Virus record (IMG/VR): IMGVR_UViG_3300005663_000107
Coordinates: 1 to 40,329 of that record
Source of the DNA: a virus
Length of the DNA stretch: 40,329 nucleotides
Strand: one strand, 5' to 3'
The notes beneath the pieces are model-generated. The model saw nothing but the letters and a program-made list of their open reading frames with translations. It was not told the origin of the DNA and made no database searches. The stretch's first letter is position 1, and each line of letters opens with the position of its first letter. This document shows, piece after piece, positions 16,172-34,199 of this stretch. The position numbers were made by a program, and so were the translations under genes.

Positions 16172-19100
16172 CTAGGCATCCGGTACTCGTACAGCACTGC
16201 CCCCGATCGAGAAGCCCGTCAAGCCTTCTGTCTTCACTTTTTTCCACAGGTCGTCGTCCTTGATGCGCACAGCGAGCAGCCAGGTGCCCCGCTTCACGAG
16301 CTGTCTGCCGACCTTGAAGTCGCTCGGGGCCAGGAAGGATTCGAGGATCTTGACCCGACTGTTGATGACGGTCTGGTGCATGAGACCGATGTTCTGGAAC
16401 CGCTCCATGAACTTGTGTGCAACCTGCCGGACCTCCTCGTGCGAGTAGATGTCTCGCTGAGCGTCGATGGTCTCGGGTTCAAGAACGATTCCGAGCACGT
16501 ACCGCTCTTCGGCATCCTTCGGTCGGACGACCTTGACGACACGCTCGCCAAGGAGCAGCTCGTCGTCCGGGCTCATCGACTTCTTGCGCTCACCCGGCTC
16601 AAGCAGGTCGAGGACCTCCTGAATGCCAGATGACGACTTGCGGTCCGACAGCTTGACAACCGAGGCGGGCCCGAACCAACGCAGCCGGAACGGCTCAGTC
16701 TCGGTGAAGAGGATCTCCGACACCTCTGCAATAATGACGTCGCCGACCTTCGCATCGACCTTGGAGTTGCCCGTCGTGCCGATCGGCACGTAGAGCTTGC
16801 CGCCAACCTCGACCGTTTCCTTCCACTTCCCAGTATCGGCCTTGGGAATCGGCCCGACTGCACCAAAGTAGTTCCAGACGCCCGGGGAGTCCTTCACGGA
16901 GTCTCGACCGTGGACGATCGCATTGACGATGCGAGCGAGTTTGAGCTTGGTCCACGAGGACGTCTGCCCACCAAGCGCATACGTCGCATCGGCCAGATCG
17001 ATCCACTCGATGTCGACTTTCGACGCGGGCGGAAGCGACGCGACATAGAGCCGCCCGCCCTTGCCTGCAATCCTGAAGGGGCGGCCGATCTTCGCGAGCG
17101 CTGCAAGCGCGTACGCCGAGTTGGGCAGCTCAACGATGAAGTCGGTTGTGACACCAACAATGGCGTCAACGATCGCGTCCTCGTTGCCCTCCGACTGCGG
17201 ATGGGGCGGTGTGGTAACGAGTACCGCACCGTCGTTCTGCTTCGCACACAGTGCAAAGTAATCGGACCATTCCTCGAACGGCAAGCCCACCGGCACAACG
17301 ATCGCGAGGTCGCGGCCACCGACGTACTTCTGGAGGATCTCGACGGTCTGCTTACGTCGGGGCAGTTCCTCCACCGCCGCGTCGTCTGGAAGATCAGCTG
17401 GTACGAAGAACTTCTTCTCGGTCACCACACGCTTGTACTGACCGTCGACCAGCTTGATGTTGTCGTCGGTGAAGAAGCGCTCATCGACCAACGCATCACG
17501 AACCGTCCGCGCCTCGTTGCCTTTCCTCTCCCAGTAGCGGAACTCCTTTGGCGTCACCCGTTCGAGTGAGATCGGGATCGCGGAGTGTCCATCGGGCGGC
17601 ATCGACTTCGTTTTGACCGCGCGTCGCCCGAGAACTGAAGGCATCAACTCCTTGCTCACCCACGACGTCCAGAACGCTTCACCCGTAGGCGTCTTGCCGC
17701 CGTCGCCATCGTCGGCCTTTCCAACAAGTTGGCGGAAGAACATCGTGCCCCTGAGTTCCGATCCCTTCCCAGTGAAAAAATACTCGTGCGAGAAGGACTT
17801 CTGCAAACCGAACTCGACCTTGGGCTTGCTCGCAATGACCATCACGCCTTCTTCGTTGCGTGTCGCGCCAACCTCCCCCTCTTCGAAGACGCGGTTGTCG
17901 ATACCGAGCCAGATGAGCGGCTGCCGCGACTTCGGTGTCGCGAAGAGTTTGGCCGGCGCGCGCATCGGCTTCGTGAACCGATCGCCATCGAGCGAGAACG
18001 ACTGCGCGATCCGCCGCGCATTGGCTACCGTGTCGACCGGTTGTCGAATCGCGCCGGCCCGTTGATTGGACAAGGTCCAGCCGACCAGGAAGTCGCTAAC
18101 CTGGAGACGGAGATCGGCGTGCAGACTCTTGCCGCGGAAGTGGTACTGGAGAATCGCCGGACGGGGCCCGCGTTGCTTCGGAAGGTCGAGCAGCGGATCG
18201 TCCTGCTTCGCGAGGGCCATCTGCTTCACGTCGAATTGCGGACGCATCTCGACAACGAGATCCGCGAGTTCGACGTGCCGAGTGAACGGTCCGCCGAACT
18301 CGTCGTCGAGGAATTGGATTCGACGTGATAGCTCCGGCGGGAACATGCGCCCGATGCGAAACTCCAGAACGTGGCGCAGCGCGGGTGACATCGGACCCTT
18401 GATCAGCAGGTCGATATCGTTGGGCGTCTCGCCACGGTTCGCGAGCCCACCAACAAGATAAAGCAACGGCATCCGCAGCTTGAACGACTTGAGGTGGCTC
18501 AACACCTCATCGAGCTTGAGAACGTCGCCCTGCTCTTCGCCGGACGCGTGAATCGTCGCGTACTCGGGGTCCTCTGCGGCCTTCTGCCTGAGCTGCTGCA
18601 CCTCGTCGACGAGAGCGTTGTCGAGCTTGATGTCACGGTCGCGACGCTTCGCTTCGTCGAGAACGAACAGCGCAGCATTAACCACGTCTTCACGCGAGAG
18701 ACCACGGAGCGTAGTTTTGTCGTTCCCCTTGAACCCGCTGACGTACGCGGAGTCGACCCGGGCAACTGTCGTCTTGAACTCTTCCTCGCTGAGCTGGCGC
18801 AGGCGAACGGGATCGATATCCTCAACACTAAGCTGCTTGCCCGGTCCGTCCTGCGAAGGAACCAACGCGCCGCCTTCGGTCACGAGGTCCTCCGTAGTGA
18901 TGTCGGCCTTGGTCTCCGCTTCGCGGCACGCGGTCGCGATGTTCGTCGCAAAGTAGCGCCGAGCTTGTTTAATGCCACCGCCAACCTCTGACCGAACTTC
19001 ACTGGTCGCGATAGTAAATTGCTTACTGCCCATTGCTTTGAGCGCGGCGCGATGTTCATCGTGGTCGCCCAGTTCGCAAATCCACTGACCCTTGAGCGCC

Positions 19101-20506
19101 CGGACTACCTTGACCAGCTCATCGAGGTCGAACTCGTCGCGCTTGCCGATGTCATCAGCGGCGTCCGTCCACTCCTCGGACCAGGGTGGATCGATAAAGA
19201 AGAGTGTGTCGGGAGAGTCAAACTTCTTCAGAACCGCGCGGTAGTCGAGATTGAAGATGCGAACGCCCTTGAGCCGTTCAGCAAATCGCACCAGCCTCTC
19301 AGGGTCGTATGCGTCTTTCCCGACCTTGGCCGAGTTCGGATTCGCGCGGCGGACGCCGGCCCATGAGCCGCCCTGCAAGTAGAGGAACCGATGTAGCCGC
19401 TCGACCGGGTCCTTCGGCCGCGAATCGAGCATTTCCTTCCAGCCCGCAACGCGGACTTTCCGGTTGAACCTCTTGAGGTGAGCGATGAGCTTCTCATCCG
19501 CCTTCTGGATCATCTTGAGCGCGTGCGAGACCTCAGCATCGAAGTCGTTCAAGACCTCGTCGTCGGCACGCTCCTTGGCGAACAGCACAGAAGCCGCGCC
19601 GGAGAAGGGCTCGACGTAGCGTTTATGCTCGGGGAGCATCGTGGCAATCTTCGATGCGTACTTCGCGGAACCGCCCCATCGCGAGAATGGTCCCGACTTT
19701 GCCAACTGTGACGCGGGTGGCGCATCAACGTCGGGTGCGTCGAGCCGATCGCGGAACTCGTCCCAAAACTCGCCGGGGCTGGCGCTGCGCCACGAGTGCT
19801 CGCCGATCTTCAGCTCGTGCTGGTGCAGCCCATCGAACGCTGAATAGAACACTTGGAGCTGGTGGGCGTGGTTACCCCCAGCAACGGTTTCCACGATCGA
19901 GCCGTCGGGCATTCGTACCCGGTGCGTATGCGCGCCATCCTCGGCCGACTTGTTGGCGCCACTATTCGCGAGGGCGTGAGTGTGTACTCCGTCCTCCTCG
20001 GTGACGATCGTCTTCCCGTCGGGCAGGGCAAACAGGTGAGTGTGCGCACCGTCCTCGCGCGTCGTCTTCTTGTCGCGGTCGAGCGTGTGGACGTGGATGC
20101 CGCCCTCGACCACCGAGTTCGGGAAGCCCTTCCGGGCCTCCGCGATCTCGATCTCGCTCGCGAAGCGGCGACCGGGCGGCGGCTTCTTGAGTTCGATAGG
20201 CTCCTCGAACACCACGACGATCTCGAACGGCATAAAGTGTAGCGGCGAGACCGTCGAGAACTCTTCGAGCGTGAACTGGTCGATGCCTTCGCGCAGCTTC
20301 TTGGGCACTGCCGCGAGGTCGCGGAACCGTTCGGGCTCGCCTTGTGTAACCACTGCCCAAACAAAAACACCCTTCTTGACCGCGAGCCCGACCTCGTTCA
20401 CGAGGAACTGTCGAGCGCCAACTCGCCGGCGCCGTGCCTGGCGCGACAGGAAGCCGGCCGACTTCCCCGCGCGAAGCCGTCCGACCAGGAACGCCGGGTC
20501 CGACAT
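16172..20506 (-). CDS. Polyprotein: HxH repeats, Dam-like methylase, NTase, LigD-like segments, XkdF-type prohead protease
   Basis: 1,444 residues from the ATG at 20506. The frame continues upstream but overlaps the HNH gene, so that part is rejected. Seen, in order: basic N-terminus; six HxH units at ~138-230 (DGAHTH-type repeats); adenine methylase of D12/Dam type at ~272-525 (motif I EPFSGAASVLFAK at 299, DPPW at 439); an acidic linker; a nucleotidyltransferase-like motif at 684-702 (LVGGL...NDIDLLI); a segment like the LigD phosphoesterase domain at ~784-814 (HADLRLQVSDFLVGW); a ligase OB-like stretch at ~1225-1290; and an XkdF serine-protease-like domain at ~1335-1444 (VLEPETIDAQRDIYS; IGLMHQ; LTGFSIGG). 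The XkdF domain fits capsid maturation at this position. Whether the other domains are packaged or cleaved free is unknown. No clear ribosome site was seen. Confidence 0.82.
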   Translation of the reverse strand: MSDPAFLVGRLRAGKSAGFLSRQARRRRVGARQFLVNEVGLAVKKGVFVWAVVTQGEPERFRDLAAVPKKLREGIDQFTLEEFSTVSPLHFMPFEIVVVFEEPIELKKPPPGRRFASEIEIAEARKGFPNSVVEGGIHVHTLDRDKKTTREDGAHTHLFALPDGKTIVTEEDGVHTHALANSGANKSAEDGAHTHRVRMPDGSIVETVAGGNHAHQLQVFYSAFDGLHQHELKIGEHSWRSASPGEFWDEFRDRLDAPDVDAPPASQLAKSGPFSRWGGSAKYASKIATMLPEHKRYVEPFSGAASVLFAKERADDEVLNDFDAEVSHALKMIQKADEKLIAHLKRFNRKVRVAGWKEMLDSRPKDPVERLHRFLYLQGGSWAGVRRANPNSAKVGKDAYDPERLVRFAERLKGVRIFNLDYRAVLKKFDSPDTLFFIDPPWSEEWTDAADDIGKRDEFDLDELVKVVRALKGQWICELGDHDEHRAALKAMGSKQFTIATSEVRSEVGGGIKQARRYFATNIATACREAETKADITTEDLVTEGGALVPSQDGPGKQLSVEDIDPVRLRQLSEEEFKTTVARVDSAYVSGFKGNDKTTLRGLSREDVVNAALFVLDEAKRRDRDIKLDNALVDEVQQLRQKAAEDPEYATIHASGEEQGDVLKLDEVLSHLKSFKLRMPLLYLVGGLANRGETPNDIDLLIKGPMSPALRHVLEFRIGRMFPPELSRRIQFLDDEFGGPFTRHVELADLVVEMRPQFDVKQMALAKQDDPLLDLPKQRGPRPAILQYHFRGKSLHADLRLQVSDFLVGWTLSNQRAGAIRQPVDTVANARRIAQSFSLDGDRFTKPMRAPAKLFATPKSRQPLIWLGIDNRVFEEGEVGATRNEEGVMVIASKPKVEFGLQKSFSHEYFFTGKGSELRGTMFFRQLVGKADDGDGGKTPTGEAFWTSWVSKELMPSVLGRRAVKTKSMPPDGHSAIPISLERVTPKEFRYWERKGNEARTVRDALVDERFFTDDNIKLVDGQYKRVVTEKKFFVPADLPDDAAVEELPRRKQTVEILQKYVGGRDLAIVVPVGLPFEEWSDYFALCAKQNDGAVLVTTPPHPQSEGNEDAIVDAIVGVTTDFIVELPNSAYALAALAKIGRPFRIAGKGGRLYVASLPPASKVDIEWIDLADATYALGGQTSSWTKLKLARIVNAIVHGRDSVKDSPGVWNYFGAVGPIPKADTGKWKETVEVGGKLYVPIGTTGNSKVDAKVGDVIIAEVSEILFTETEPFRLRWFGPASVVKLSDRKSSSGIQEVLDLLEPGERKKSMSPDDELLLGERVVKVVRPKDAEERYVLGIVLEPETIDAQRDIYSHEEVRQVAHKFMERFQNIGLMHQTVINSRVKILESFLAPSDFKVGRQLVKRGTWLLAVRIKDDDLWKKVKTEGLTGFSIGGSAVRVPDA

Positions 20507-20552
20507 CTTCAACGCGGGCAGCTTGCCGCGAGGTGGCTCGACCTTCTGGAGT

Positions 20553-21050
20553 TCAGTGCCCACAAGCAGACTTTGCTGAGCACTGCAACGAGCAGAATTT
20601 TGGGCGCCTATTTCTAGAACCGCGCCGTTCGAACAATGCACCACACGTAACACAAACACACTCACGCACGCGTCGACCCCACGCGCGCCTGCATGCGATG
20701 TCACAGAATGCGCGTTTGGACGGCCGACCGTTGTCCATAAGCCTATCGACGTTTGATCCACACCACGCGCACAGCGCGATCTGGTGCTTCCATGGCTGCC
20801 GTCGATGTAACCGCGTGTGTTCTGCTAAGCTCAACAACCGCAAGTTCTCTGCTCGATTGTCGGCTCTGATTCCGTTCACGTGATGCACTACTTCATCGGA
20901 CCGCAGCGGTCGGCCCAGCGCTGCAGCGACTACCAGGCGGTGCTCCTTCTCTGCTCGACCGTCTATCGCGATGACGACGTAGCCCGCTGAATCTGTGCGA
21001 GTGGGCCACCACGGCGATTTCGTAAAGCGCTCTACAGTACCAGCATCCAC
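20553..21050 (-). CDS. HNH homing-type endonuclease with C-terminal zinc motifs
   Basis: 165 residues. The HNH core spans [35 protein letters not shown] and LAEHTRLH (catalytic-type His-His at 56-57, Asn at 65 and 69, His at 78). After it come CAWCG, CDIAC, CVTCG and CSLQC, i.e. paired cysteines that could hold two zincs and read DNA. Free-standing HNH genes of this type are common mobile elements in phages. It is inserted between the terminator at 21161 and the polyprotein gene. I saw no flanking intron structure and no strong ribosome site. Confidence 0.85.
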
Positions 21051-26407: not shown

Positions 26408-26710
26408 ATGACTGGAACGCTAGCCGCGCTGATGAGCAACCCTCGCGATCTCGGGATCGTGGTCGGCGGATTCGAGCGCGTCATCTTTGGGAGCTTCATC
26501 GTAGACCAGGGTCCGCAGACGATGGCGGAGATCAAACGACGCTTCGAAATTTGTACGCGCATCTTCAAAGAGCTGCGCGGCGATCTCGACTGGGGCCTCC
26601 AGCGCATCCTCGACCACCTGCCCGCGTACCTGCGCGCAGAGCTGGACGGAATGGAGTGGGAGCCGGACACGCGTCAGTGTTGGGTGCCCAGCGACGGCGC
26701 GATGAGTTAG
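26408..26710 (+). CDS. Hypothetical protein after the MuF gene
   Basis: 100 residues, start ATG at 26408, 3 nt after the MuF stop. It has a hydrophobic N-terminal portion (NPRDLGIVVGGFERVIFGSF) and a helical, acidic end (WGLQRILDHLPAYLRAELDG). No family recognised. The stop codon abuts the first box of array 1, so this gene and the Tas-like gene converge on that array. Confidence 0.68.
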   Translation: MTGTLAALMSNPRDLGIVVGGFERVIFGSFIVDQGPQTMAEIKRRFEICTRIFKELRGDLDWGLQRILDHLPAYLRAELDGMEWEPDTRQCWVPSDGAMS

Positions 26711-26915
26711 AAGCGCGCTAGGACTTCGGGCGACGCTTTCAGAACGGCTCGCGTAGATCGAGTGGTCGTCGTATCTGCTATGGCTCGCGTGTCAGTAGAG
26801 GGCGGCGCAAGTGGTGAGGCGCGCGCGAGTACCACGGGCGGCGTGAGGAGAACGGCTCGCGTCAGCGGGACGGTTGTCGTAGTGCCAACGGCTCGCGCGT
26901 GAGGACCGGGTGCCG
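26710..26915 (-). repeat. TIGR-like guide array 1 (12 boxes), 3' of the Tas-like gene
   Basis: Boxes lie at exact 18-bp steps: 26710 (degenerate), 26728, 26746, 26764, 26782, 26800, 26818, 26836, 26854, 26872, 26890 and 26908. A-type (GGCTCGCG and variants such as GGCGCGCG) alternates with B-type (GGGCGACG, GGTCGTCG, GGGCGGCG, GGTTGTCG, GGGTGCCG), each separated by a unique 10-nt segment. Coordinates are plus-strand; the strand given is inferred from the flanking Tas-like gene. The array ends 6 nt from that gene's stop. Confidence 0.88.
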
Positions 26916-26921
26916 CCTCCA

Positions 26922-27863
26922 TTACAGCGCGTTCGCCAGCTCTTCCTCGACCTCGGGTGAGTCCATCAACGCCTCGACGTCGGCGCTCGACTTGCCGTTG
27001 CTGCCGACAGCGGTGGCCTCGTGCGTGTGCCCGAGCTTCTCCTCTTGGTACGACGGACGGACAGGCAAGTCCTCGAACGCGCGCCAGTCCTTCCAGATCG
27101 CGAGGAGGAGCTGCTTGACCATGTAGCGGATCGCCGCATGGTGTCGGTGCGCGTCGCCCGTGCCCCAGCCCGCGCTGGCCTTGCGATGCTTGTAGTCGTC
27201 GTACAACTTGCGCCACGGCGAGTTCGCTTTGATGAGACACGGCCCGAGAACACCGACGAGCTTCGTCTTCAGGAACGCGTTGTACGGCAGCTTCTCACCG
27301 CGCTTCGGTCGCATCGACTTGCCGCTGTCGTAGATCGCCGACCGCTGAAGCACGTCGACCCCGCAGTGTGCTTCCTTCTTGACGGCGTGCTTGAAGCGGT
27401 CGGCGTCCTTGACCGGCTCGACGAGGTGGTTGCACTTCTTGCAACGCTGCGCCGGTACCGGAGCGAGTCCGGCGAACGCCCACATTTGCGAAGCGGTATC
27501 CTCGCGTGCGATGTCGAACTCGCTGAGGATAACACCGGCCATTGTCGGACCGAGTCCCTTGAAGCGCGACTTGTCGCTGAGGATCTCGGTGTAGAAGAGC
27601 ATCGTCTTGAGGTGGTCCTGGACATCGCGCAGCGCGGCCTTCTCCGCGATGAGCAACTCCTTCGCGCGGTTTTCCAAGATCACCTGGTCGACTTCGTGAA
27701 GCTGGATCTCGTTACCCTCGGCCTTCGGTTGAATCCGTCCGCCGCACTGCAGCCGCATCCGCTGCAGGTCGTAGAACATGCGGACCTTCTTCTTCAACCC
27801 AAGACGTGTCTGCTCTCGAGTACGGTCGGAGGCGATTGCTGGGTTCACTCGCTTCGGCGGCAT
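26922..27863 (-). CDS. Tas-like Nop/IS110 C-terminal-domain protein (RNA-guided DNA-binding candidate)
   Basis: 313 residues, ATG at 27863 with AAAGGAG upstream. Residues ~20-98 form a long helical region like the Nop coiled coil. Residues ~101-135 (FKGLGPTMAGVILSEF, then MWAFAGLAPV) match the conserved helix-hairpin core of IS110/IS116 transposase C-terminal domains, which is related to Nop proteins. CKKC at 141-144 plus His/Cys at 166-167 could bind zinc. HRHHAAIRYMVKQLLLAIW at 239-257 matches the closing IS110 helix. There is no N-terminal DEDD/RuvC catalytic half and no HNH, so it is not a complete transposase. Flanking 36-bp arrays make it a candidate nuclease-less Tas protein. Its targets are unknown. 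Confidence 0.88.
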   Translation of the reverse strand: MPPKRVNPAIASDRTREQTRLGLKKKVRMFYDLQRMRLQCGGRIQPKAEGNEIQLHEVDQVILENRAKELLIAEKAALRDVQDHLKTMLFYTEILSDKSRFKGLGPTMAGVILSEFDIAREDTASQMWAFAGLAPVPAQRCKKCNHLVEPVKDADRFKHAVKKEAHCGVDVLQRSAIYDSGKSMRPKRGEKLPYNAFLKTKLVGVLGPCLIKANSPWRKLYDDYKHRKASAGWGTGDAHRHHAAIRYMVKQLLLAIWKDWRAFEDLPVRPSYQEEKLGHTHEATAVGSNGKSSADVEALMDSPEVEEELANAL

Positions 27864-27880
27864 GGTTCGCTCCTTTCAAA

Positions 27881-28228
27881 GGGCGTCGTGATTCGTCCGG
27901 CGCGCGCATCATCCATGGGCGGCATTACACCGGCGGCGCTATCCCACGACTTGATCGCGCGTCAGCGTTTTCATGACCCGCCTAGGACATCTGGGTGGCG
28001 CCTTCTTCGTCGGCTCGCGTAGCTCATTCGGGTGACCGCTAGTCATTAGGCTCGCGTTTGTATTTCGGGTGTCGTCGAGACTGCGGCTCGCGCTACTTGT
28101 TAGGGTGCCGTGAGGTATACAGCGCCGCGTGTGCGTTCGGGTGTCCCGTCTCCTATGGCCCGCGCCCTTCCTTCGGTTGGCGCATGATCTTCAGCCCGCG
28201 TGATAGAACTGGGCGACGCTAGTCATTA
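27881..28228 (-). repeat. TIGR-like guide array 2, directly upstream of the Tas-like gene
   Basis: About 18 boxes: 27881 (B), 27899 (A), 27917 (B), 27935 (A, weak), 27957 (B, weak), 27975 (A, weak), 27993 (B), 28012, 28030, 28049, 28067, 28085, 28103, 28121 (A, weak), 28139, 28157, 28175, 28193 and 28211. Most steps are 18 nt, with a few of 19 and a 4-nt insertion after 27935, so this array is the most eroded. The last spacer contains the stop codon of the 28219 gene, and a relic A box (GGCTTGAG) continues inside that gene. The Tas ribosome site starts just after the array. Confidence 0.85.
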
Positions 28229-28512
28229 GGCTTGAGGAGCACCAACTCTTCAAGCTCGCTGAGCACGTCGAGCACTTGCTGAAGCGCACGAAGGCCAACC
28301 TTCTGCGGCCCGCGGTTGGGTAGGTGGTCCAGGAGCAGCACCTCGATCGCCCGCCGCGTGAGCGGACCATTGTTGAGCACCTTGCCAACCGCCTGGGAGA
28401 TCGCGCGGACGTTGTCGGCAAGTTCGTCGAGGCTCACGAAGCCCGACGGGATGTCGACACCGCCGAGGCGTAGCTCGGCCTCACGCGCAGCACGGTCAGG
28501 CTTGCCCGCCAT
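28219..28512 (-). CDS. Hypothetical helical protein upstream of array 2
   Basis: 97 residues, mostly helical (DELADNVRAISQAVGKVLNN; LRALQQVLDVLSELEELVLL). No family recognised. It starts 17 nt inside the previous gene, and its stop (CTA on plus, 28219) falls in the last spacer of array 2, so its C-terminal codons (KPND) are partly made from array sequence. Confidence 0.7.
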   Translation of the reverse strand: MAGKPDRAAREAELRLGGVDIPSGFVSLDELADNVRAISQAVGKVLNNGPLTRRAIEVLLLDHLPNRGPQKVGLRALQQVLDVLSELEELVLLKPND

Positions 28513-28909
28513 AGGCCGGATGCTTCGTCCTCATATGGTCGTGAAGGTCCCTGAACGTACGCTTGCAGCACGGACACACGCCGTTCTTGATGCGCTGCTT
28601 CGTCGCCTTCAATTTGCCTTTGTATACGTCGCGACTACGCCCTAGGTGGTCAGCGCGGCGCCGCTCATTGCCGACTTCGTCGCGTGCCATCCGCGTCTTG
28701 CCGCGTTCAGTTTCAAGCTGTCGCTTCAGACGCGCAGCGTCGGTCTCGCCGGAGAACGATTGGCGATGACCGTTGTAGCAGTAAAAATCCTGATGGTCGT
28801 TCCTGCGCTTCTTCAGAATCCACGTCTCCATCCAGATCGGTGAGCCGCACCGGTAGCAAGAGACAAAGTCGAAGTCGAGCGACAGGTTGGCGTGTTGCGG
28901 TTCGCTCAT
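28496..28909 (-). CDS. Two-zinc-finger protein with coiled coil
   Basis: 137 residues. N-terminus: CYRCGSPIWMETWILKKRRND then CYNGH, a zinc-ribbon-like group. Residues ~55-100 are a charged coiled coil. C-terminus: CPCCKRTFRDLHDHMRTKH, a C2H2 finger. Phage proteins of this kind occur in several actinophage-like genomes and are presumed to bind nucleic acid; the function is unknown. The ATG overlaps the preceding stop. Confidence 0.8.
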   Translation of the reverse strand: MSEPQHANLSLDFDFVSCYRCGSPIWMETWILKKRRNDHQDFYCYNGHRQSFSGETDAARLKRQLETERGKTRMARDEVGNERRRADHLGRSRDVYKGKLKATKQRIKNGVCPCCKRTFRDLHDHMRTKHPAYGGQA

Positions 28910-29271
28910 TGAAATAGCTCCCGACTAAGGACCAACGTTTCTACGGCGGGCTTACCGTACAACTTCACGCGCAAGATGAGCGCGTCTCTCAAGACGTCAT
29001 GGTCGCTCTCAATACTTTCGATCTCCGGGTGCCACTTCTTGAAGTGTACGAAGAGCCGACCAAGGAGATCGTGGCGAAGCACGCCATCTTTGCATAGACG
29101 AAGGATACTGTTGGTGACGTGGTCGCAGACAATCTGCGCACCCTCGTCTGGCTCCATCCCGTCAAGACGCCAACGGGCATCCCGCGCGTCGGAACATTCC
29201 GCACACTGCTGCTCGTCGGGGCCGACCGGTGCACCGCAGTCGACACAGAGGGTTGAGACTAGTTCGATCAC
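28906..29271 (-). CDS. Hypothetical zinc-ribbon protein
   Basis: 121 residues from a GTG at 29271 that overlaps the upstream stop (29268). It begins with STLCVDCGAPVGPDEQQCAEC, two CxxC pairs. The rest is helical (HVTNSILRLCKDGVLRHDLL). The longer reading frame upstream runs opposite the neighbouring gene in a different frame and is rejected. Confidence 0.68.
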   Translation of the reverse strand: MIELVSTLCVDCGAPVGPDEQQCAECSDARDARWRLDGMEPDEGAQIVCDHVTNSILRLCKDGVLRHDLLGRLFVHFKKWHPEIESIESDHDVLRDALILRVKLYGKPAVETLVLSRELFQ

Positions 29272-29525
29272 GCCTTCTTGATCTCCACGCGCCCGGCGAT
29301 GACCTCCGACGTAAGACGTTTGCGCGCGTCGTGGGCCAAGAGACACTTGTCGGAACAGAGCATCGGCGTTGGTTCGAGCGGCGTCCTCGGGTTCTCGACC
29401 GCCGTCCAACTGTCTATCAGCATGCTCGGCACGACCGTTACTCCCCTGCTCGTGAGCGCGAACTTCGCAGTGCGCATCTCACCGCACTCATCGCAACGTA
29501 GGGTGCCGGGGAAGTAAGCAGTCAT
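29268..29525 (-). CDS. Hypothetical small zinc-binding protein
   Basis: 85 residues. CDECG near the N-terminus and CSDKC near the C-terminus could form one zinc site. The ATG at 29525 is only 1 nt from the first box of array 3, so there is no room for a normal ribosome site between array and start. The site, if any, must lie in array sequence, or translation depends on processing. Confidence 0.68.
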   Translation of the reverse strand: MTAYFPGTLRCDECGEMRTAKFALTSRGVTVVPSMLIDSWTAVENPRTPLEPTPMLCSDKCLLAHDARKRLTSEVIAGRVEIKKA

Positions 29526-29526
29526 C

Positions 29527-29823
29527 GGCTCGCGCTCGTCTATTGGATGTCGTGAAGCATGCGGCTCGCGTTATGGCGACGGTCGACGCAAAGTGTTCGG
29601 CTCGCAATCCATCCATGGTTGGCCCGCGCTGATCGGCTCGCGCAGAGATAGCGGGCGACGTCGGTACGAAGGCTCGCGCATCTTCTTTGGAGAACGTTTG
29701 AGACAAGGCTCGCACTCGTGGCGTGGATGACGTCCTCTGGTCGGCTCGCATTTCAATGACTGGTTGTCGAATCCCTCATGGCTCGCGTCGGAACTTCGGT
29801 CGCCGCAAGTGCTACGGCTCTAC
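29527..29823 (-). repeat. TIGR-like guide array 3 (17 boxes, 8 full units)
   Basis: A boxes: 29527, 29563, 29599, 29635, 29671, 29707, 29743, 29780, 29816 (last degenerate, GGCTCTAC). B boxes: 29545, 29581, 29617, 29653, 29689, 29725, 29762, 29798. All steps are 18 nt except one of 19. It fills almost all the space between the terminase stop (29851) and the 29525 start. B boxes vary strongly (GGATGTCG, GGTCGACG, GGTTGGCC, GGGCGACG, GGAGAACG, GGATGACG). Confidence 0.9.
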
Positions 29824-29850
29824 GTTTGACTTGTACGAACTTCGCGCTTT

Positions 29851-31353
29851 TTACCCGATGATCCGCGCATTCACCGCACAATTATGGCCGCCGAGTCGTG
29901 CACCTTCGCGCGAAAACCAGCATCCCATAAGCCGGTCACCTGTGTGCGAGCGCGGGTCGTAGTACAACATCTCGCTGATCCATGCCTCGACTTCGGGGTC
30001 GAGCTTGCCGCCATCGTTTGGGATGAGCCACTTGCCACCGGCCATCTCCGCCGCGAGCGACTCGATGCCGAACTCGGGATGCGCCTTGTTGCGCCCAGTA
30101 GTGAACGGCATGATCGGAACTGCACTCGCCTCGCGAGCGAACTGAAGCACGAAGTCCTGCGCCGCGTTGTTCTCGACAACGACCACTGAGTTGAACCGTT
30201 GGTGTGCGCCGACGATACGACGAACGATATCGGGCCCCGACCAGCGACCCGCTTCGATTGCAAGAACCTGCCGACAGTCGTCAGGGTCGACAAGGATCGT
30301 GAAGAGTACGGTGAGTCCCGCCGCAGAGTGGCGTTGCACCGCAAGGTCGACACCGGTGTACGTTGAACATTCCCCATCTTGGACCATTTTGTGTAGCTCG
30401 GGATCGAGCTGCTCGAACTCGGCGAGCGAACGAACGAGACGCATCCCCGAGCCCTCTGCGATACACCGATCGATCCACTCACGCTGGAACCGCGCCTGCG
30501 ACTCGTCGCGCGCCTTGCACAGCATCTGCCGGCTGAACTCCAGCGGACCCAGCTCCTCGCGGCGGCGCTGGATGCGGGACGCCGACCACTTCTCCGGCCA
30601 AGCGGAGACACCGGCGTCGGAGATGACGGGGAAGCGCTTTGCAATCCAAGCTGGATTCCCCGCGAGCCGGTGCAGCAAATCTTCGGGGTGGAACGCGGTG
30701 CCAATGATGAGCACGCGGGCGCGATCCGTCAAACGGCTGGCGAGCGCGGAGTGGTACCAGTCCCAAAGGTCTTGGCGAGCAGCAACGGTCTGGCAGTTCT
30801 CGTAGTCGAGTATGTCGTCGAGGATGAGCAGATCGATGCGAGAGCCGACGATCGCGCCGTGAACGCCGCATGCCTGAACGCTCGGATCTTTTGCGCGGAA
30901 CAAACGGTCGATGTAGAGGTGATGCCCGGTCCAGGGCTCCGACTTCTTTAGGTCGGGGAAGACCACGCGCAAGTCTTCGGACTTCTCGATAAAGTGTGCG
31001 ACCGCGCGAATGACCTTCGACGCCTGCTCGTGCGTGTTCGAGATGATCGCAACGCGTGTGCTCGTGTCACGACCGAGCGCGTGCAGCGTGCGCGCGATCG
31101 AGAGCTGCTGTGTCTTCCCGCCTTCGGTGAATGACCACAAGATTACGCGATCGTTCTCTTCGGCAAGCTGGTGCCATTCCTCATGGATCGACGCCTGCTC
31201 AATCGGCTGCCCGGTCTGCTCATCTTTGAGGACCAGCTCGCAAAATTCATTGACGTTGCCACGTGCAACCTGAACGCGCAGCGCGACCTGTCGACGTGCA
31301 CGATCATGCACTTCCGCCATGGTCTCGTCGGGTCGTTGCTGTTGTGCGCTCAA
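29851..31353 (-). CDS. terL: Terminase large subunit
   Basis: 500 residues from a TTG at 31353 with GAGG before it (ATG at 31320 is an alternative). Walker A is SFTEGGKT (74-81), Walker B LLILDD (175-180) and the coupling motif GTA (218-220). The RNase H-type nuclease domain has TGVDLAV (D336), VVVVEN (E394) and TGDRLMGCW (D473), all acidic residues present. It packages DNA through the portal and cuts concatemers. It directly follows a tiny membrane protein gene. Confidence 0.94.
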   Translation of the reverse strand: MSAQQQRPDETMAEVHDRARRQVALRVQVARGNVNEFCELVLKDEQTGQPIEQASIHEEWHQLAEENDRVILWSFTEGGKTQQLSIARTLHALGRDTSTRVAIISNTHEQASKVIRAVAHFIEKSEDLRVVFPDLKKSEPWTGHHLYIDRLFRAKDPSVQACGVHGAIVGSRIDLLILDDILDYENCQTVAARQDLWDWYHSALASRLTDRARVLIIGTAFHPEDLLHRLAGNPAWIAKRFPVISDAGVSAWPEKWSASRIQRRREELGPLEFSRQMLCKARDESQARFQREWIDRCIAEGSGMRLVRSLAEFEQLDPELHKMVQDGECSTYTGVDLAVQRHSAAGLTVLFTILVDPDDCRQVLAIEAGRWSGPDIVRRIVGAHQRFNSVVVVENNAAQDFVLQFAREASAVPIMPFTTGRNKAHPEFGIESLAAEMAGGKWLIPNDGGKLDPEVEAWISEMLYYDPRSHTGDRLMGCWFSREGARLGGHNCAVNARIIG

Positions 31354-31354
31354 G

Positions 31355-31468
31355 CTACCTCAACCACACCACGAGCAGCACCCCCACCGCAAGGACGATG
31401 AAGAAGACGAGCAGCGGCAACGAGCCGGTCATGAAGAAGTGCTTGAACAAGTCCAGACGTTTGCCCAT
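31355..31468 (-). CDS. 37-residue single-pass membrane protein
   Basis: A short gene from the ATG at 31468, overlapping the upstream stop (ATGA), and ending at 31355, 2 nt before the terminase start. MGKRLDLFKHFFMTG is followed by a run of about 20 hydrophobic residues (LPLLVFFIVLAVGVLLVVWL). It could be a holin-like or spanin-like peptide, or simply a small membrane protein; no lysin is in the window. Confidence 0.65.
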   Translation of the reverse strand: MGKRLDLFKHFFMTGSLPLLVFFIVLAVGVLLVVWLR

Positions 31469-31914
31469 CAGTTGTACGACCTCCAGCGATCCGGGTCGAG
31501 CACGCAGTCGAAGCACAGATGCGCGAACTCGCGCTCCTGCGAGAGGTAGCTTGTACCAAACCGTTTCCGTCGACAATCCTCGCAGCGCGCACGCGTTCCG
31601 ATCTTCGCTTTGACGTAGACCTCGCGGAGCTGCTTGGTGTGCACACGGCAGCAGGCGGGAATCCGATCGAGAACCTGCTCAACGACCTTCGGCTCCGGCT
31701 TGTCGCCCGGCCCGCAACCAGCCAACTCGCGCGCCTCGGCCGCCACGTCGTCACGCTTGAAGATGTAGTCCATCAGCGCGACCACCGTGATCGCGAAACC
31801 CTTCGGCCACTGCGCGCGATACGGCTCGCCGTGACGCGCGCAAAGCAGGCGCTCGTGGGTGACGGCGATGCCGTCGAACTTCTCAGGATCGAAAGGTGGC
31901 AGCTCGTCAGCCAT
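31468..31914 (-). CDS. Hypothetical zinc-binding protein
   Basis: 148 residues from the ATG at 31914. The track start further upstream runs into array 4 and is rejected. The C-terminus has CEDCRRKRFG and CFDC, likely one zinc site. A CCRVH group occurs in the middle. The N-terminal half is globular (FAITVVALMDYIF). No family recognised. Confidence 0.7.
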   Translation of the reverse strand: MADELPPFDPEKFDGIAVTHERLLCARHGEPYRAQWPKGFAITVVALMDYIFKRDDVAAEARELAGCGPGDKPEPKVVEQVLDRIPACCRVHTKQLREVYVKAKIGTRARCEDCRRKRFGTSYLSQEREFAHLCFDCVLDPDRWRSYN

Positions 31915-31924
31915 CGCTAGGACT

Positions 31925-32004
31925 GTATCGCGCTTCGCGTTTGGTTGTCGCTGGGTGCACGGCTCGCGTTGCAAGTGCGGATGTCGCTGCGTGCACGGCT
32001 CACG
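31925..32004 (-). repeat. TIGR-like guide array 4 (5 boxes)
   Basis: Boxes at 31925 (degenerate GTATCGCG), 31943 (GGTTGTCG), 31961 (GGCTCGCG), 31979 (GGATGTCG) and 31997 (GGCTCACG), all exactly 18 nt apart. The last A box supplies the stop codon of the methyltransferase gene. The two B-to-A spacers, CTGGGTGCAC and CTGCGTGCAC, differ by one base. Confidence 0.85.
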
Positions 32005-32770
32005 TCTTCTTGTACACCGTCAACCACTCCTGCGCCGATCTGGAATTGCGGCGCACCTGACCACGCCGAGCCGCCGTGAGTTCGTGTGTCGTCCAACTGT
32101 CGTCGAATTGAAGAGGCGCCGCCTCCGACACGGCCACGACGCGGGCGCCCGCATTCTTCCACGCCATCGCAAGCTCGATGACCTCGAACCGCGTCAGCGC
32201 GTGATCGTAACCCGACCGCCCCTTGTACGGCGGATCGATGTAGACGCAGGCGCCGGCGAACGGCTCGACGTCGGCCGCATACTTGAAGACTTCGATTGGC
32301 GGAAGCTCGGGTACCTCGCGGAGCCGCCACGCGAGTGAACCGCGCGACGGGATGAAGCCGTCGACACTCGGACGGTTGACGTGGAGGCCCTTGAATCCGC
32401 CGCGCTCGTGTCCGCCGTGCGTCCCCGCAACGAGAACCAATGCACGTGCCGCACGGACCCACTCGTGGTCGTGTTGACCACGACCGCCACGAAGTGCATC
32501 CCAGAGCGTCCGCGCGTCCTCATACTGCCACTGCTCGACCACGTCAGCGACGCGATCCGAGAGACCCCACGTCAAAGCAACCCAGACGTCGTGCCAAATC
32601 CCAGGCTCCGCGAGGAGGACTCGCTCGACGCGCCGTAGGTCCATGAGGTCCGCGATGATCTCCGCGTAGCCGTCCTTGCCACCCGCGTACGAAACGAGTT
32701 TCCATCCTCCGCTACACCACCGCGTCAACGCCGCCGACCCAGCACACAGCTCGACCAGCACGTCGACCAT
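32000..32770 (-). CDS. DNA adenine methyltransferase, D12/Dam class
   Basis: 256 residues from the ATG at 32770, which overlaps the preceding stop (ATGA). VELCAGSAALT (residues 6-16) is motif I for AdoMet binding, and YIDPPY (177-182) is motif IV, the catalytic DPPY. Between them lies a target-recognition region of the D12 type. It probably methylates adenine in phage DNA, for example against restriction; the recognised sequence is unknown. It is the second such domain in the window (the other is fused in the polyprotein). Confidence 0.88.
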   Translation of the reverse strand: MVDVLVELCAGSAALTRWCSGGWKLVSYAGGKDGYAEIIADLMDLRRVERVLLAEPGIWHDVWVALTWGLSDRVADVVEQWQYEDARTLWDALRGGRGQHDHEWVRAARALVLVAGTHGGHERGGFKGLHVNRPSVDGFIPSRGSLAWRLREVPELPPIEVFKYAADVEPFAGACVYIDPPYKGRSGYDHALTRFEVIELAMAWKNAGARVVAVSEAAPLQFDDSWTTHELTAARRGQVRRNSRSAQEWLTVYKKT

Positions 32771-32976
32771 CAGTCCGCCTGCAACTTCAACTTGACCTTC
32801 CGCCCGACGTACCACTCCGACGCTTCCTCAGCCGGCAGTTCGAATCGCATTGAGAAATTTTCGTCGAGCATGACCGTCACGTTGATGGACTCGCCCTTAC
32901 CGTCCTCGGCGTCTCCTGCAGGTCCCTGCAATGACCGCTCTTGCGATACAACTACACCCTTCTTGGTTCGACTCAT
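32770..32976 (-). CDS. Hypothetical small beta protein
   Basis: 68 residues with GGAGGATC before the ATG at 32976. The second half is beta-like (SINVTVMLDENFSMRFELP; WYVGRKVKLKLQ). No family recognised. It is the first gene after array 5 and shows that a normal ribosome site follows the array end. Confidence 0.72.
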   Translation of the reverse strand: MSRTKKGVVVSQERSLQGPAGDAEDGKGESINVTVMLDENFSMRFELPAEEASEWYVGRKVKLKLQAD

Positions 32977-33001
32977 TCGATCCTCCGGTTGACTGTTTGT
33001 T

Positions 33002-33837
33002 GGCCCGCATTCGCTGCGTGGGTGTCGCTGCTCACAAGGCTCGCGCGGCAGGCGAGGATGTCGTGCTTGGGAAGGCTCGTGCTGCTTGAACGGGTGTCGC
33101 TACATCTTCGACTCGCGTAGATCCATAGGGGGTCATACGGACACGGCTCGCGTTGGAGCAACGGAGGTCGCATCTATCAAGGCTCGCGCAACCACAGCGG
33201 GGGTCGTTGGAGTTGGGGCTCGCGCTCATACATCGGAAGTCGCTTCTTATCTGGCACGCGCTGCGAAGACGGGTAACGAGTCTTGCAGGCACGCGTAGGT
33301 CCGTTGGGTGTCGCGTGAGCATGGGCTCGCGCATCTGTGACGGGTGTCGTGTGTTGAAGAGGCACGCGCCGCTTGGTAGGGTGACGTCCTCTGATCGGCT
33401 CGCGCTTTGTGCATGGAGGTCGTTGCCTATCCGGCTCGCGTGTGTTTGATGGTTGGCGCGTGTGATACGGCTCGCTCGGGTCCAGCGGGTGTCGCAACTC
33501 GTATGGCTCGCGCGTCGACGACTGGGAGCCGTTTGAGCCAAGGCTCGCGTCTCATCTCCGGGTTACGCATTAGGCACGGCACGCGTGAAGCCATCGGGGG
33601 TCGCACGACAATCGGCACGCGCGCGAAGATAGGGTGTCGTCCGCAAAGTGGCTCGCATGGCAACTGCGGGTGACGCTACAACCGCGGCTCGCGCCTTAGT
33701 TCTGGGCGACGTTACGATTGCGGCTCGCGCCAGATGGACGGGTGTCGTCAAGTCGGTGGCTCGCGTCTCTGCCTAGGTTGTCGCTTTGGCGTCGGCTCGC
33801 GTCGGCTAATAGGGTACCGCTTCGTTGACAGCTCGCG
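33002..33837 (-). repeat. TIGR-like guide array 5 (largest: 24 A and 23 B boxes)
   Basis: A boxes step by 36 nt from 33002 to 33830, with B boxes midway from 33020 to 33812. Nearly all spacers are 10 nt; a few are 9 or 11 (for example before 33145, 33288 and 33361). A consensus is GGCTCGCG with position 4 free (T, A, C). B consensus is GGGTGTCG with the four middle bases variable. The 23 full units would give 23 guides of 36 nt, each with two 10-nt variable parts. It lies between the stop of the 33839 gene and the ribosome site of the 32976 gene. The boxes are not complementary to each other. Confidence 0.93.
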
Positions 33838-33838
33838 T

Positions 33839-34054
33839 TCACCCCGCAAGATCCTTTTGTTTCGCGAGCCACGCGCTGATGACAAGGTCGCCTTCGGTGC
33901 CGTCTTCGTACACCTCCGAGTCATCGTGGATCTGCGACTTGGGAATCCAATATTCCTCGCCCTCGATATCGCAGAGCAGTGCCAGGTCCGTCTCGCGGAC
34001 CACGGTCACATCGGAGATGCGTACTGGTTCGGCCATGCCTTTAGACTTGCGCAT
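33839..34054 (-). CDS. Hypothetical small protein between arrays 5 and 6
   Basis: 71 residues from the ATG at 34054; an internal ATG at 34036 (MAEPVRISD) is an alternative. Beta-like sequence (DVTVVRETDLALLCDIEGE) is followed by EYWIPKSQI and a terminal ISAWLAKQK helix. Small proteins with this layout are common in phages, but the function is unknown. Arrays lie on both sides. Confidence 0.72.
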   Translation of the reverse strand: MRKSKGMAEPVRISDVTVVRETDLALLCDIEGEEYWIPKSQIHDDSEVYEDGTEGDLVISAWLAKQKDLAG

Positions 34055-34080
34055 CGACCGCGGCTTTTCGCAACCCGATC

Positions 34081-34199
34081 GGCTCGCGCTCTGACTGTGG
34101 GTGATCGTGAAAACTGCGGCTCGCGTCTCTCGAAGGGGTGTCGCGTGTACATCGGCTCGCGCTTGTGTAGTGGGGATGCCGCTCTACCCATGGCTCACG
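34081..34199 (-). repeat. TIGR-like guide array 6 (7 boxes)
   Basis: Boxes: 34081 (A), 34099 (B, 9 nt, GGGTGATCG), 34118 (A), 34136 (B), 34154 (A), about 34172 (B, GGGATGCCG form) and 34192 (A, GGCTCACG). The last A box holds the TGA stop of the 34195 gene, exactly as in array 4. Insertions of one or two bases sit within B boxes and not in the 10-nt spacers. Confidence 0.86.

What the first reader, a model, noticed from the sequence alone, without database searches (positions are those of the whole stretch)
26710..34199. A phage TIGR-Tas-like RNA-guided system with a nuclease-less Tas protein
Seen: six arrays of alternating 8-bp boxes (A GGCTCGCG, B GGGTGTCG) spaced by 10-nt unique segments, period 18+18 = 36 bp, around a gene for a Nop/IS110-C-terminal-like protein. 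Known: TIGR-Tas systems, reported in 2025 mainly from phages, use tandem interspaced arrays cut into 36-nt guides with two spacers, bound by a Nop-domain Tas protein related to IS110 and box C/D proteins. Inferred: this is such a system. No RuvC or HNH is visible on the Tas-like protein, so it may bind and block DNA without cutting it.
Basis: partly seen in the sequence, partly recalled or inferred. Interest (0 to 1): 0.97.

Follow-up and report, generated by a model that had tools for sequence, protein, structure and literature searches.

The report
Phage TIGR-TasA RNA-guided DNA-binding system
This phage carries a gene for a nuclease-free RNA-guided DNA-binding protein and six batches of short paired guide sequences; it belongs to a family described in 2025, and its guides have a three-letter rhythm hinting that they are aimed at protein-coding genes.

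Summary
Six arrays of alternating 8-nt boxes with ~10-nt spacers, period 36, surround a 313-aa gene (44 A-10-B hits vs 2.3 expected; 48 complete units). The protein passes NCBIfam TIGR_Tas_endo, matches TasR and TasH by sequence and predicted fold (Z about 20) and lacks their nuclease domain. That is TasA, the nuclease-less class of Faure et al. 2025 (PMC12045711): a new member of a known kind.

Possibly new: the window's spacers have a 3-nt periodicity (z about 7; same phase leads in all six arrays, z 1.8-3.7) and few stop triplets in one matching frame (4 vs 13.1, 0 of 1000 shuffles). In other TIGR phages, related guides differ coherently modulo 3 if the target is read as 9+1+9 bp (6 pairs vs 0.75 permuted), not with other gaps. 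This hints at coding targets, but several controls are negative and no target was identified, in the phage itself or elsewhere.

The parts
26922..27863 (-). tas gene, TasA type (solo Nop domain), 313 aa
   Evidence: NCBIfam NF052498 104.9 bits, cut-off 100; Pfam Transposase_20 1.5e-6; fold match to TasR 111-302 and TasH 66-286
26710..26915 (-). TIGR array 1, directly 3' of tas (12 boxes, 5 complete units)
27957..28236 (-). TIGR array 2, 5' of tas (16 boxes, 7 units)
29527..29823 (-). TIGR array 3 (9 + 7 boxes, one degenerate stretch between; 7 units)
31925..32004 (-). TIGR array 4 (5 boxes, 2 units)
33002..33837 (-). TIGR array 5, the longest (47 boxes, 23 units)
   Evidence: chain score 146 against a shuffle maximum of 8
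34044..34199 (-). TIGR array 6 (9 boxes, 4 units)
29851..31353 (-). terminase large subunit, lying between arrays 3 and 4 on the same strand
   Evidence: phrog_38, 1.9e-58
32000..32815 (-). weakly DNA-methyltransferase-like gene between arrays 4 and 5
   Evidence: phrog_56, 1.6e-4; Pfam only 0.31

Best explanation
This is a phage TIGR-TasA system. One TasA gene and six guide arrays lie on the minus strand around the terminase gene and are probably expressed together with its neighbours. The precursor RNAs would be cut inside the edge repeat into about 36-nt tigRNAs of the form half edge, spacer A, loop CGACACCC, spacer B, half edge. A TasA dimer would hold one tigRNA, the loop box on one protomer and the edge boxes on the other. 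The two 9-nt spacers would open about 18-19 bp of DNA, each pairing with a different strand. With no RuvC or HNH domain, the complex most likely acts by tight binding and sharp bending, blocking transcription or replication of a foreign target such as a rival phage or a host gene. Shown here: arrays, their strand, box covariation, protein family, fold and lack of nuclease. Taken from the published relatives: 36-nt processing, dimer, two-strand pairing, bending. Inferred: blocking as the mode of action, foreign targets, shared transcription.
For: Protein. Arrays. Orientation: in 14 of 16 Tas loci (the window's own and one duplicate pair included) the GCGAGCC edge core recurs at 36-nt spacing on the tas strand and in none on the other; 64 of 84 Tas loci examined (duplicates included, no shuffle control) have at least 3 strictly spaced units on the tas strand (which searched that strand only). 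Box rule: the first base of edge and loop agrees in 48 of 49 systems, and 6 non-A agreements occur against 0.5 expected (systems are partly related, so the P value is too good); the window has CG..CC in both repeats. tblastn reaches Salicola phage CGphi29 (2e-6), which the paper names as carrying SpTasH. Foreign target: the window's 48 guides have no better matches in their own 118-kb genome than pair-shuffled guides.
Against: No small-RNA or binding data. No target found. No intrinsic terminator was seen at any array end on the minus strand by a simple scan, although the paper says arrays typically end in one. Exceptions to the same-strand rule exist far from tas: in G002 the array is about 45 kb away and on the other strand, and in G018 one array is about 55 kb away and on the other strand.
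Confidence: 0.88

Rival explanations
1. Codon-phased targeting: within the same TIGR-TasA frame, guides are aimed at protein-coding DNA, the natural site is 19 bp (9+1+9), and guide variants follow synonymous change in the target.
For: Window: GC at spacer positions 1-9 is .57 .30 .36 .70 .49 .37 .73 .46 .39, phase 1/4/7 z 6.9, and phase 1/4/7 has the highest z in each of the six arrays (1.8 to 3.7); stop triplets in the antisense frame with codon third bases at 1/4/7 are 4 against 13.1 (0 of 1000 column shuffles); a codon-usage mixture puts .51 and .49 on the two frames that share this phase. Other systems: related guide pairs differ coherently modulo 3 with a one-base gap in 6 cases (permutation mean 0.75, none of 100 reaches 6), against 1 and 1 for gaps 0 and 2; synonymous peptide clusters 7 against 1.9, P .01. 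Stop triplets in 48 other systems: antisense 123 78 vs 105.5, z -3.2; sense 234 z -2.2.
Against: The strong GC periodicity is nearly confined to the window: two other systems are suggestive (z 3.2 and 2.6), GC-rich others pooled show none, G018 z 1.1 and G017 -2.2. Column-shuffled window spacers keep much of the codon-mixture weight. In the composition-free model the window's fit (LL 3.6) is below the shuffle maximum of 4.2, phase non-uniformity in other systems is not significant (dLL 3.1 on 5 df) and A-B linkage is absent; window A-B orientation correlation -0.19, P .12. Sense 345 stops are also depleted (z -3.2), which one phase does not predict. Two of the six coherent pairs come from one trio, one pair (L136) has a stop in both readings when read by hand, and others are only partly synonymous; two of the seven peptide clusters are the two readings of one pair. 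Peptide hits in 2.1 Mb of loci equal permutations (806 vs 751-973). A one-phase lock is more than coding origin alone predicts, and position 4 may fall in the published seed.
Confidence: 0.38
2. The three-base rhythm is a pairing preference (strong G-C pairs at guide positions 4 and 7) with nothing to do with codons.
For: GC at positions 4 and 7 exceeds the mean of the other inner positions in 34 of 48 other systems, AT-rich ones included; position 4 would lie in the seed by my reading of the published cleavage rule.
Against: It does not explain stop-triplet depletion beyond column composition or mod-3 coherent guide variants, and position 5 is not enriched in the window.
Confidence: 0.4
3. 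TasA acts on its own genome, for example as a regulator of late genes or an aid to packaging or integration.
For: The arrays sit around the terminase gene; the paper proposes that TasA may aid phage integrases.
Against: No self-sites better than chance for the window phage, G002 or G003, or for G017 and G018.
Confidence: 0.08
4. The arrays are a protein-coding repeat, a CRISPR array or an IS110 element rather than TIGR.
For: Period 36 is a multiple of three; Pfam names the protein Transposase_20.
Against: Stops occur in all six frames of the units and box-to-box spacing varies from 17 to 20 nt; repeats are 8 nt and alternate; the predicted protein matches IS621 only over residues 124-314.
Confidence: 0.02

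Closest known systems
TIGR-TasA dual-repeat systems (Faure et al. 2025, PMC12045711; read: the text up to the start of the stem-loop section, Discussion, figure legends, and search passages)
   Same: Solo Nop-domain protein, alternating edge and loop repeats, two spacers per 36-nt unit, boxes shared between edge and loop, phage host.
   Different: Six arrays spread over 7.5 kb around the terminase gene, one with 23 units (the paper: most often 5-15); box D is CG, not UG; a Cys-bearing insertion at 141-167; a three-base rhythm in the spacers.
TasH of Salicola phage CGphi29 and TasR 9mty
   Same: Nop domain, fold Z about 20, array plan; CGphi29 edge AGCGAGCC shares GCGAGCC.
   Different: Those carry an N-terminal HNH or RuvC domain; the window protein does not.
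Microcystis phage Mvi-JY20 gene XAI95461.1
   Same: Solo Nop-size Tas (241 aa) with an array of 8 complete units beside it and a terminase gene after that.
   Different: One array, ending in a hairpin with a T run (read by eye); edge TGCGAGCC, loop CGAAACCC.
IS110 family recombinases (IS621, ISCro4)
   Same: C-terminal domain fold, Z about 16.
   Different: No DEDD domain found in the window protein.
Archaeal Nop5 of box C/D RNPs
   Same: Nop fold, Z 8.2, hardly above unrelated rows.
   Different: No fibrillarin partner or k-turn looked for; low similarity.

Membership tests
TIGR-Tas, dual-repeat type | Nop-domain Tas protein | tested here: met
   NF052498 5.5e-30, 104.9 bits over cut-off 100; TasR 2e-8 and TasH 6.1e-7 by sequence; Z 20.4 and 20.5 by fold
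TIGR-Tas, dual-repeat type | Two alternating 8-12-nt repeats with 9-12-nt spacers, unit about 36 nt | tested here: met
TIGR-Tas, dual-repeat type | Edge and loop share start and end motifs that covary between systems | tested here: met
   Window CG..CC in both; first base agrees in 48 of 49 systems, none of 5000 permutations as high (related systems not corrected for)
TIGR-Tas, dual-repeat type | Array next to tas | tested here: met
   Array 1 is 6 bp beyond the 3' end and array 2 is 93 bp before the 5' end of tas
TIGR-Tas, dual-repeat type | Array followed by a rho-independent terminator (typical) | tested here: inconclusive
   Simple scan finds none at array ends on the minus strand
TIGR-Tas, dual-repeat type | 36-nt tigRNAs bound to Tas | not testable with these tools
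   needs RNA sequencing
TIGR-Tas, dual-repeat type | DNA targeting with A and B pairing to opposite strands | not testable with these tools
   No target above chance in the own genome, 57 sibling loci and other TIGR phages
TasA subclass | No nuclease domain on the Nop protein | tested here: met
   Only about 16 residues precede the part aligned with TasR 111-302; no HNH or RuvC among Pfam hits up to E 10
IS110 transposase | N-terminal DEDD catalytic domain | tested here: not met
   Only Transposase_20 is hit; IS621 aligned over 124-314; transpos_IS110 23 bits, cut-off 140
CRISPR array | Single repeat of about 25-36 nt | tested here: not met
   Two alternating 8-nt repeats; no PADLOC family for the protein

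The most novel reading that the evidence does not exclude
The guides of phage TIGR-TasA arrays are chosen or kept against protein-coding DNA in register with the reading frame: the natural site is A9-N-rc(B9), 19 bp with one centre base between the half-sites, and sets of guides follow synonymous drift of a target gene. In this phage all six arrays share one codon phase, so third codon positions fall at guide positions 1, 4 and 7. TasA would then be a gene-silencing weapon tuned to conserved proteins of rivals or hosts.
Probability: 0.35. Interest if true: 0.82.

Novelty: new member of a known kind. Interest (0 to 1): 0.5.

Why it matters
The authors of TIGR-Tas state that natural targets are hard to identify and that the function of nuclease-less TasA is unclear. 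This locus has a large guide set (48 units in one phage), and its guides carry a statistical trace of coding DNA, with a predicted 9+1+9 geometry that a gel-shift assay can test. Mvi-JY20, a sequenced Microcystis phage with a Tas gene and an array of 8 complete units, may offer a test bed with a named host.

Tried and rejected
Self targets: 48 window units against the 118-kb phage, two pairing layouts plus a same-strand control, gaps 0-2: mean best mismatch 3.83 vs 3.86 for permuted pairs in the main layout; the same for G002 (8 units, 100,000 of 101,697 bases) and G003 (18 units after wrong-register repeats were cut off). Cross targets: 212 units against 733 kb of TIGR phages, no excess (main layout no hit under 2 mismatches; second layout one 1-mismatch hit, permutations 0 to 2); 48 window units against 57 terminase-sibling loci, no excess; window against G017, a second TIGR phage of the same metagenome, and G018, both ways, no excess. 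None of the 57 siblings has a Tas match (tblastn, E 1e-5) in the DNA held (up to 10 kb flank), and the period-36 stretches of five of them, read by eye, are not TIGR arrays.

Guide-derived patterns in IMG/VR: ATHGCTCACGCWTATTGYT gave 4 contigs, all at one site of one terminase large-subunit gene family (antisense), which by my rough estimate of collection size is what chance allows (about 5) and which contradicts the synonymous (I/M)AHAYC reading; AGARGGTGTNGGRAARGGT gave 2 contigs, both in frame, fewer than my chance estimate of about 14. One exact 18 of 18 match with a one-base gap: guide L028:10798 in a small in-frame ORF of another TIGR phage, L173 9291-9309; by hand I expect about 0.04 such hits, more in AT-rich DNA, so it is weak (looked two bases off this site). 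The 17 of 18 match of L177:6901 in L178 lies at a start codon.

Codon mixture on other systems: dominated by purine richness and reproduced by column shuffles; composition-free version shows coding-like dependence in other systems (LL 40.1 vs shuffle maximum 10.7) but not clearly in the window (3.6 vs 4.2), with no significant phase preference and no A-B linkage. Units stop-free in a mixed orientation: 48 of 48, but 47.8 by permutation, so uninformative. Near-identical spacers inside the window: 3 pairs vs 0.96 expected, 16 of 200 shuffles reach 3. L029 and L035 differ only by a 28-bp indel over 20.7 kb, so no spacer change.

Rows dropped: one search kept 590 of 651 units (49 of 50 systems) by register filters; one search kept 659 of 902 unique units because a permissive extraction also caught swapped-register units; one search left out 26 listed loci as duplicates or already-covered pieces, and hits inside arrays or in three duplicate loci.
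Full report
What is there. The window has six minus-strand arrays of alternating boxes: edge CGCGAGCC, loop CGACACCC, with spacers mostly of 10 nt, around a 313-aa gene at 26922-27863. The box pair is far beyond chance (44 matches, 40 of them in the arrays, vs 2.28 expected; chain score 146 vs a shuffle maximum of 8). There are 48 complete units and 105 boxes in seven chains. The window is wholly contained, at 100% identity, in a 118-kb IMG/VR contig. The phage has tail-sheath, terminase, portal and tape-measure genes.

Strand. In relatives the same array lies on the tas strand: Salicola phage CGphi29 AGCGAGCC/AGACAACC, Microcystis phage Mvi-JY20 TGCGAGCC/CGAAACCC, G003 TGCGAGCC/TGAAAACC. In 14 of 16 Tas loci the GCGAGCC core recurs at 36 nt, on the tas strand only. 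The published rule is UG...CCA boxes in TasR, with variants that covary between edge and loop. Across 49 systems the first base of edge and loop agrees in 48 (Mvi-JY20 is the exception), and the 6 non-A agreements exceed the 0.5 expected; some systems are related, so this P value is too good. In the window both repeats read CG....CC. Arrays far from tas can lie on the other strand (G002, G018).

Protein. NCBIfam TIGR_Tas_endo is passed (104.9 bits, cut-off 100); Pfam gives only the IS110 C-terminal family. Phmmer reaches the solved TasR (2e-8) and TasH (6.1e-7). An AlphaFold2 model from 15 sequences (pLDDT 78) matches TasH and TasR at Z about 20 and ISCro4/IS621 at about 16; Nop5 scores 8.2, hardly above unrelated rows. 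The aligned part of TasR begins at residue 111, so the RuvC part has no counterpart. This is the TasA class of Faure et al.. Residues 141-167 of the window protein hold Cys residues (141, 144, 167) kept in the 56%-identical relative L003; a metal-binding loop is possible but untested.

Distribution. Scans found 4, 12 and 68 Tas loci in viral contigs (overlapping sets) and 3 in Spirochaete MAG contigs. All 12 and all 14 records tested with the family model pass its cut-off, one of them only when two pieces are summed. Of 84 loci examined, 64 have at least 3 strict units on the tas strand (no shuffle control); the 20 misses include short loci and divergent edges such as L036. More than one array per tas is not special to the window: L029 has three. 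The 57 terminase relatives of this phage show no Tas in the DNA held, so the system may be a recent gain, though only flanks of up to 10 kb were seen.

Array turnover. Sister phages 88% (L141, L142) and 90% (L159, L161) identical keep array ends but share only 4 of 21 and 3 of 14 exact A-B pairs, with shared units in different places. At 88% identity drift alone could leave few exact pairs, but many interior units look like different sequences on reading; I ran no test of this.

Guides. Window spacers are less GC-rich than the phage (.483 vs .62). They show a three-base rhythm: GC .57.70 and .73 at positions 1, 4 and 7, with .30-.49 elsewhere, z 6.9 against within-spacer permutation; it is seen in A (z 5.1) and B (4.8) and leads in each array (z 3.2, 3.7, 2.7, 1.8, 2.9, 3.2). 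Stop triplets in the antisense frame with third bases at 1, 4 and 7 are 4 against 13.1, none of 1000 column shuffles being as low; the sense frame of the same class is 16 against 20.3, P .12. In a composition-free codon model the window does not stand clear of shuffles (LL 3.6, shuffle maximum 4.2). The phage's own codon-position GC is .65.48.73. In 48 other systems (1118 spacers) the strong GC rhythm is absent from the pooled GC-rich ones, but stop triplets vary with offset in a three-base pattern (sense 123 z +2.5, antisense 123 -3.2, sense 234 -2.2, antisense 234 -1.1, sense 345 -3.2, antisense 345 +2.3); the sense 345 depletion is not predicted by a single phase.

Sister guides. Among 659 clean units of 50 loci, guide pairs that differ at 3-5 of 18 positions in both halves do so in one modulo-3 class in 6 cases if one base separates the half-sites, against 0.75 in permutations (none of 100 reaches 6); with no gap or two bases the counts are 1 and 1, as in permutations. 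Synonymous clusters number 7 against 1.9 (P .01): for example EGVGKG in L147, NGYHLY in L147 and L161, IAHxYC in L148. This points to coding targets and to a 19-bp site; Faure et al. found one- and two-base gaps tolerated. The samples are small, two of the six pairs come from one trio, one pair (L136) is open in neither reading, two of the seven clusters are the two readings of one pair, and no target gene was found: the IMG/VR hits are at or below my chance estimates and one contradicts the synonymous reading.

How it most likely works. A TasA dimer loaded with one tigRNA opens and bends a foreign duplex, each spacer pairing with one strand, and blocks it without cutting. The first steps rest on published relatives, the last on the lack of a nuclease. 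Self-targeting is disfavoured.

Literature. Searches for TIGR-Tas (19 papers listed), tigRNA (5) and related names (404 papers hold one of the terms, 25 listed, nearly all unrelated by title) showed, beside Faure et al., a review (PMC12385481, listing and abstract start only) and papers with a few mentions. No title or abstract start in these listings mentions codon phase of TIGR guides, but preprints and most subscription journals are not held. The analogy with Tn7-CRISPR guides that tolerate wobble in conserved genes is recalled; one search listed a review (PMC11406308) that I did not open.

Verdict. A genuine, guide-rich TIGR-TasA locus: known kind, new member. The guide rhythm is the part worth follow-up.

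Noticed in passing
window 16172-20761 (-): A 1529-aa open frame joins a DNA-methyltransferase-like stretch (residues 363-593, phrog_56) to a head-maturation-protease-like end (1407-1525, phrog_3017).
   Followed up: no
window 27363-27443 (-), residues 141-167 of the Tas protein: Cys-bearing insertion (C141, C144, C167 kept in L003); possible metal site.
   Followed up: partly
L026 3725-4781 (PP438412.1, Microcystis phage Mvi-JY20): A sequenced phage with a named host carries a Tas gene annotated as hypothetical and a TIGR array of 8 complete units ending in a hairpin with a T run.
   Followed up: partly
L150 / G017 (IMGVR_UViG_3300005253_000193): A second TIGR-Tas phage in the same metagenome as the window's parent contig, with other boxes and 36 units on the tas strand.
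   Followed up: partly
G001 114062-114124 (outside the window): A four-box chain (score 14, shuffle maximum 8) on the other strand of the parent contig may be a further small array.
   Followed up: no
L028 10798 and 11086: Two units specify nearly the same target with A and B swapped, fitting the published symmetry of the two spacers.
   Followed up: partly
L173 9291-9309: Exact 18 of 18 in-frame match, with a one-base gap, to guide L028:10798, inside a small Cys-rich ORF of another TIGR phage.
   Followed up: partly
L183-L186: Guide L148:4828 matches one site in the terminase large-subunit gene of four related contigs, antisense.
   Followed up: partly
L036, L037, L038: Tas genes with arrays in Spirochaete MAG contigs, possibly prophages or misbinned phages.
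   Followed up: no
L032 5395-6014: The array just upstream of tas is open in the tas frame (12-residue repeats), perhaps by chance of box sequence and 36-nt period.
   Followed up: no
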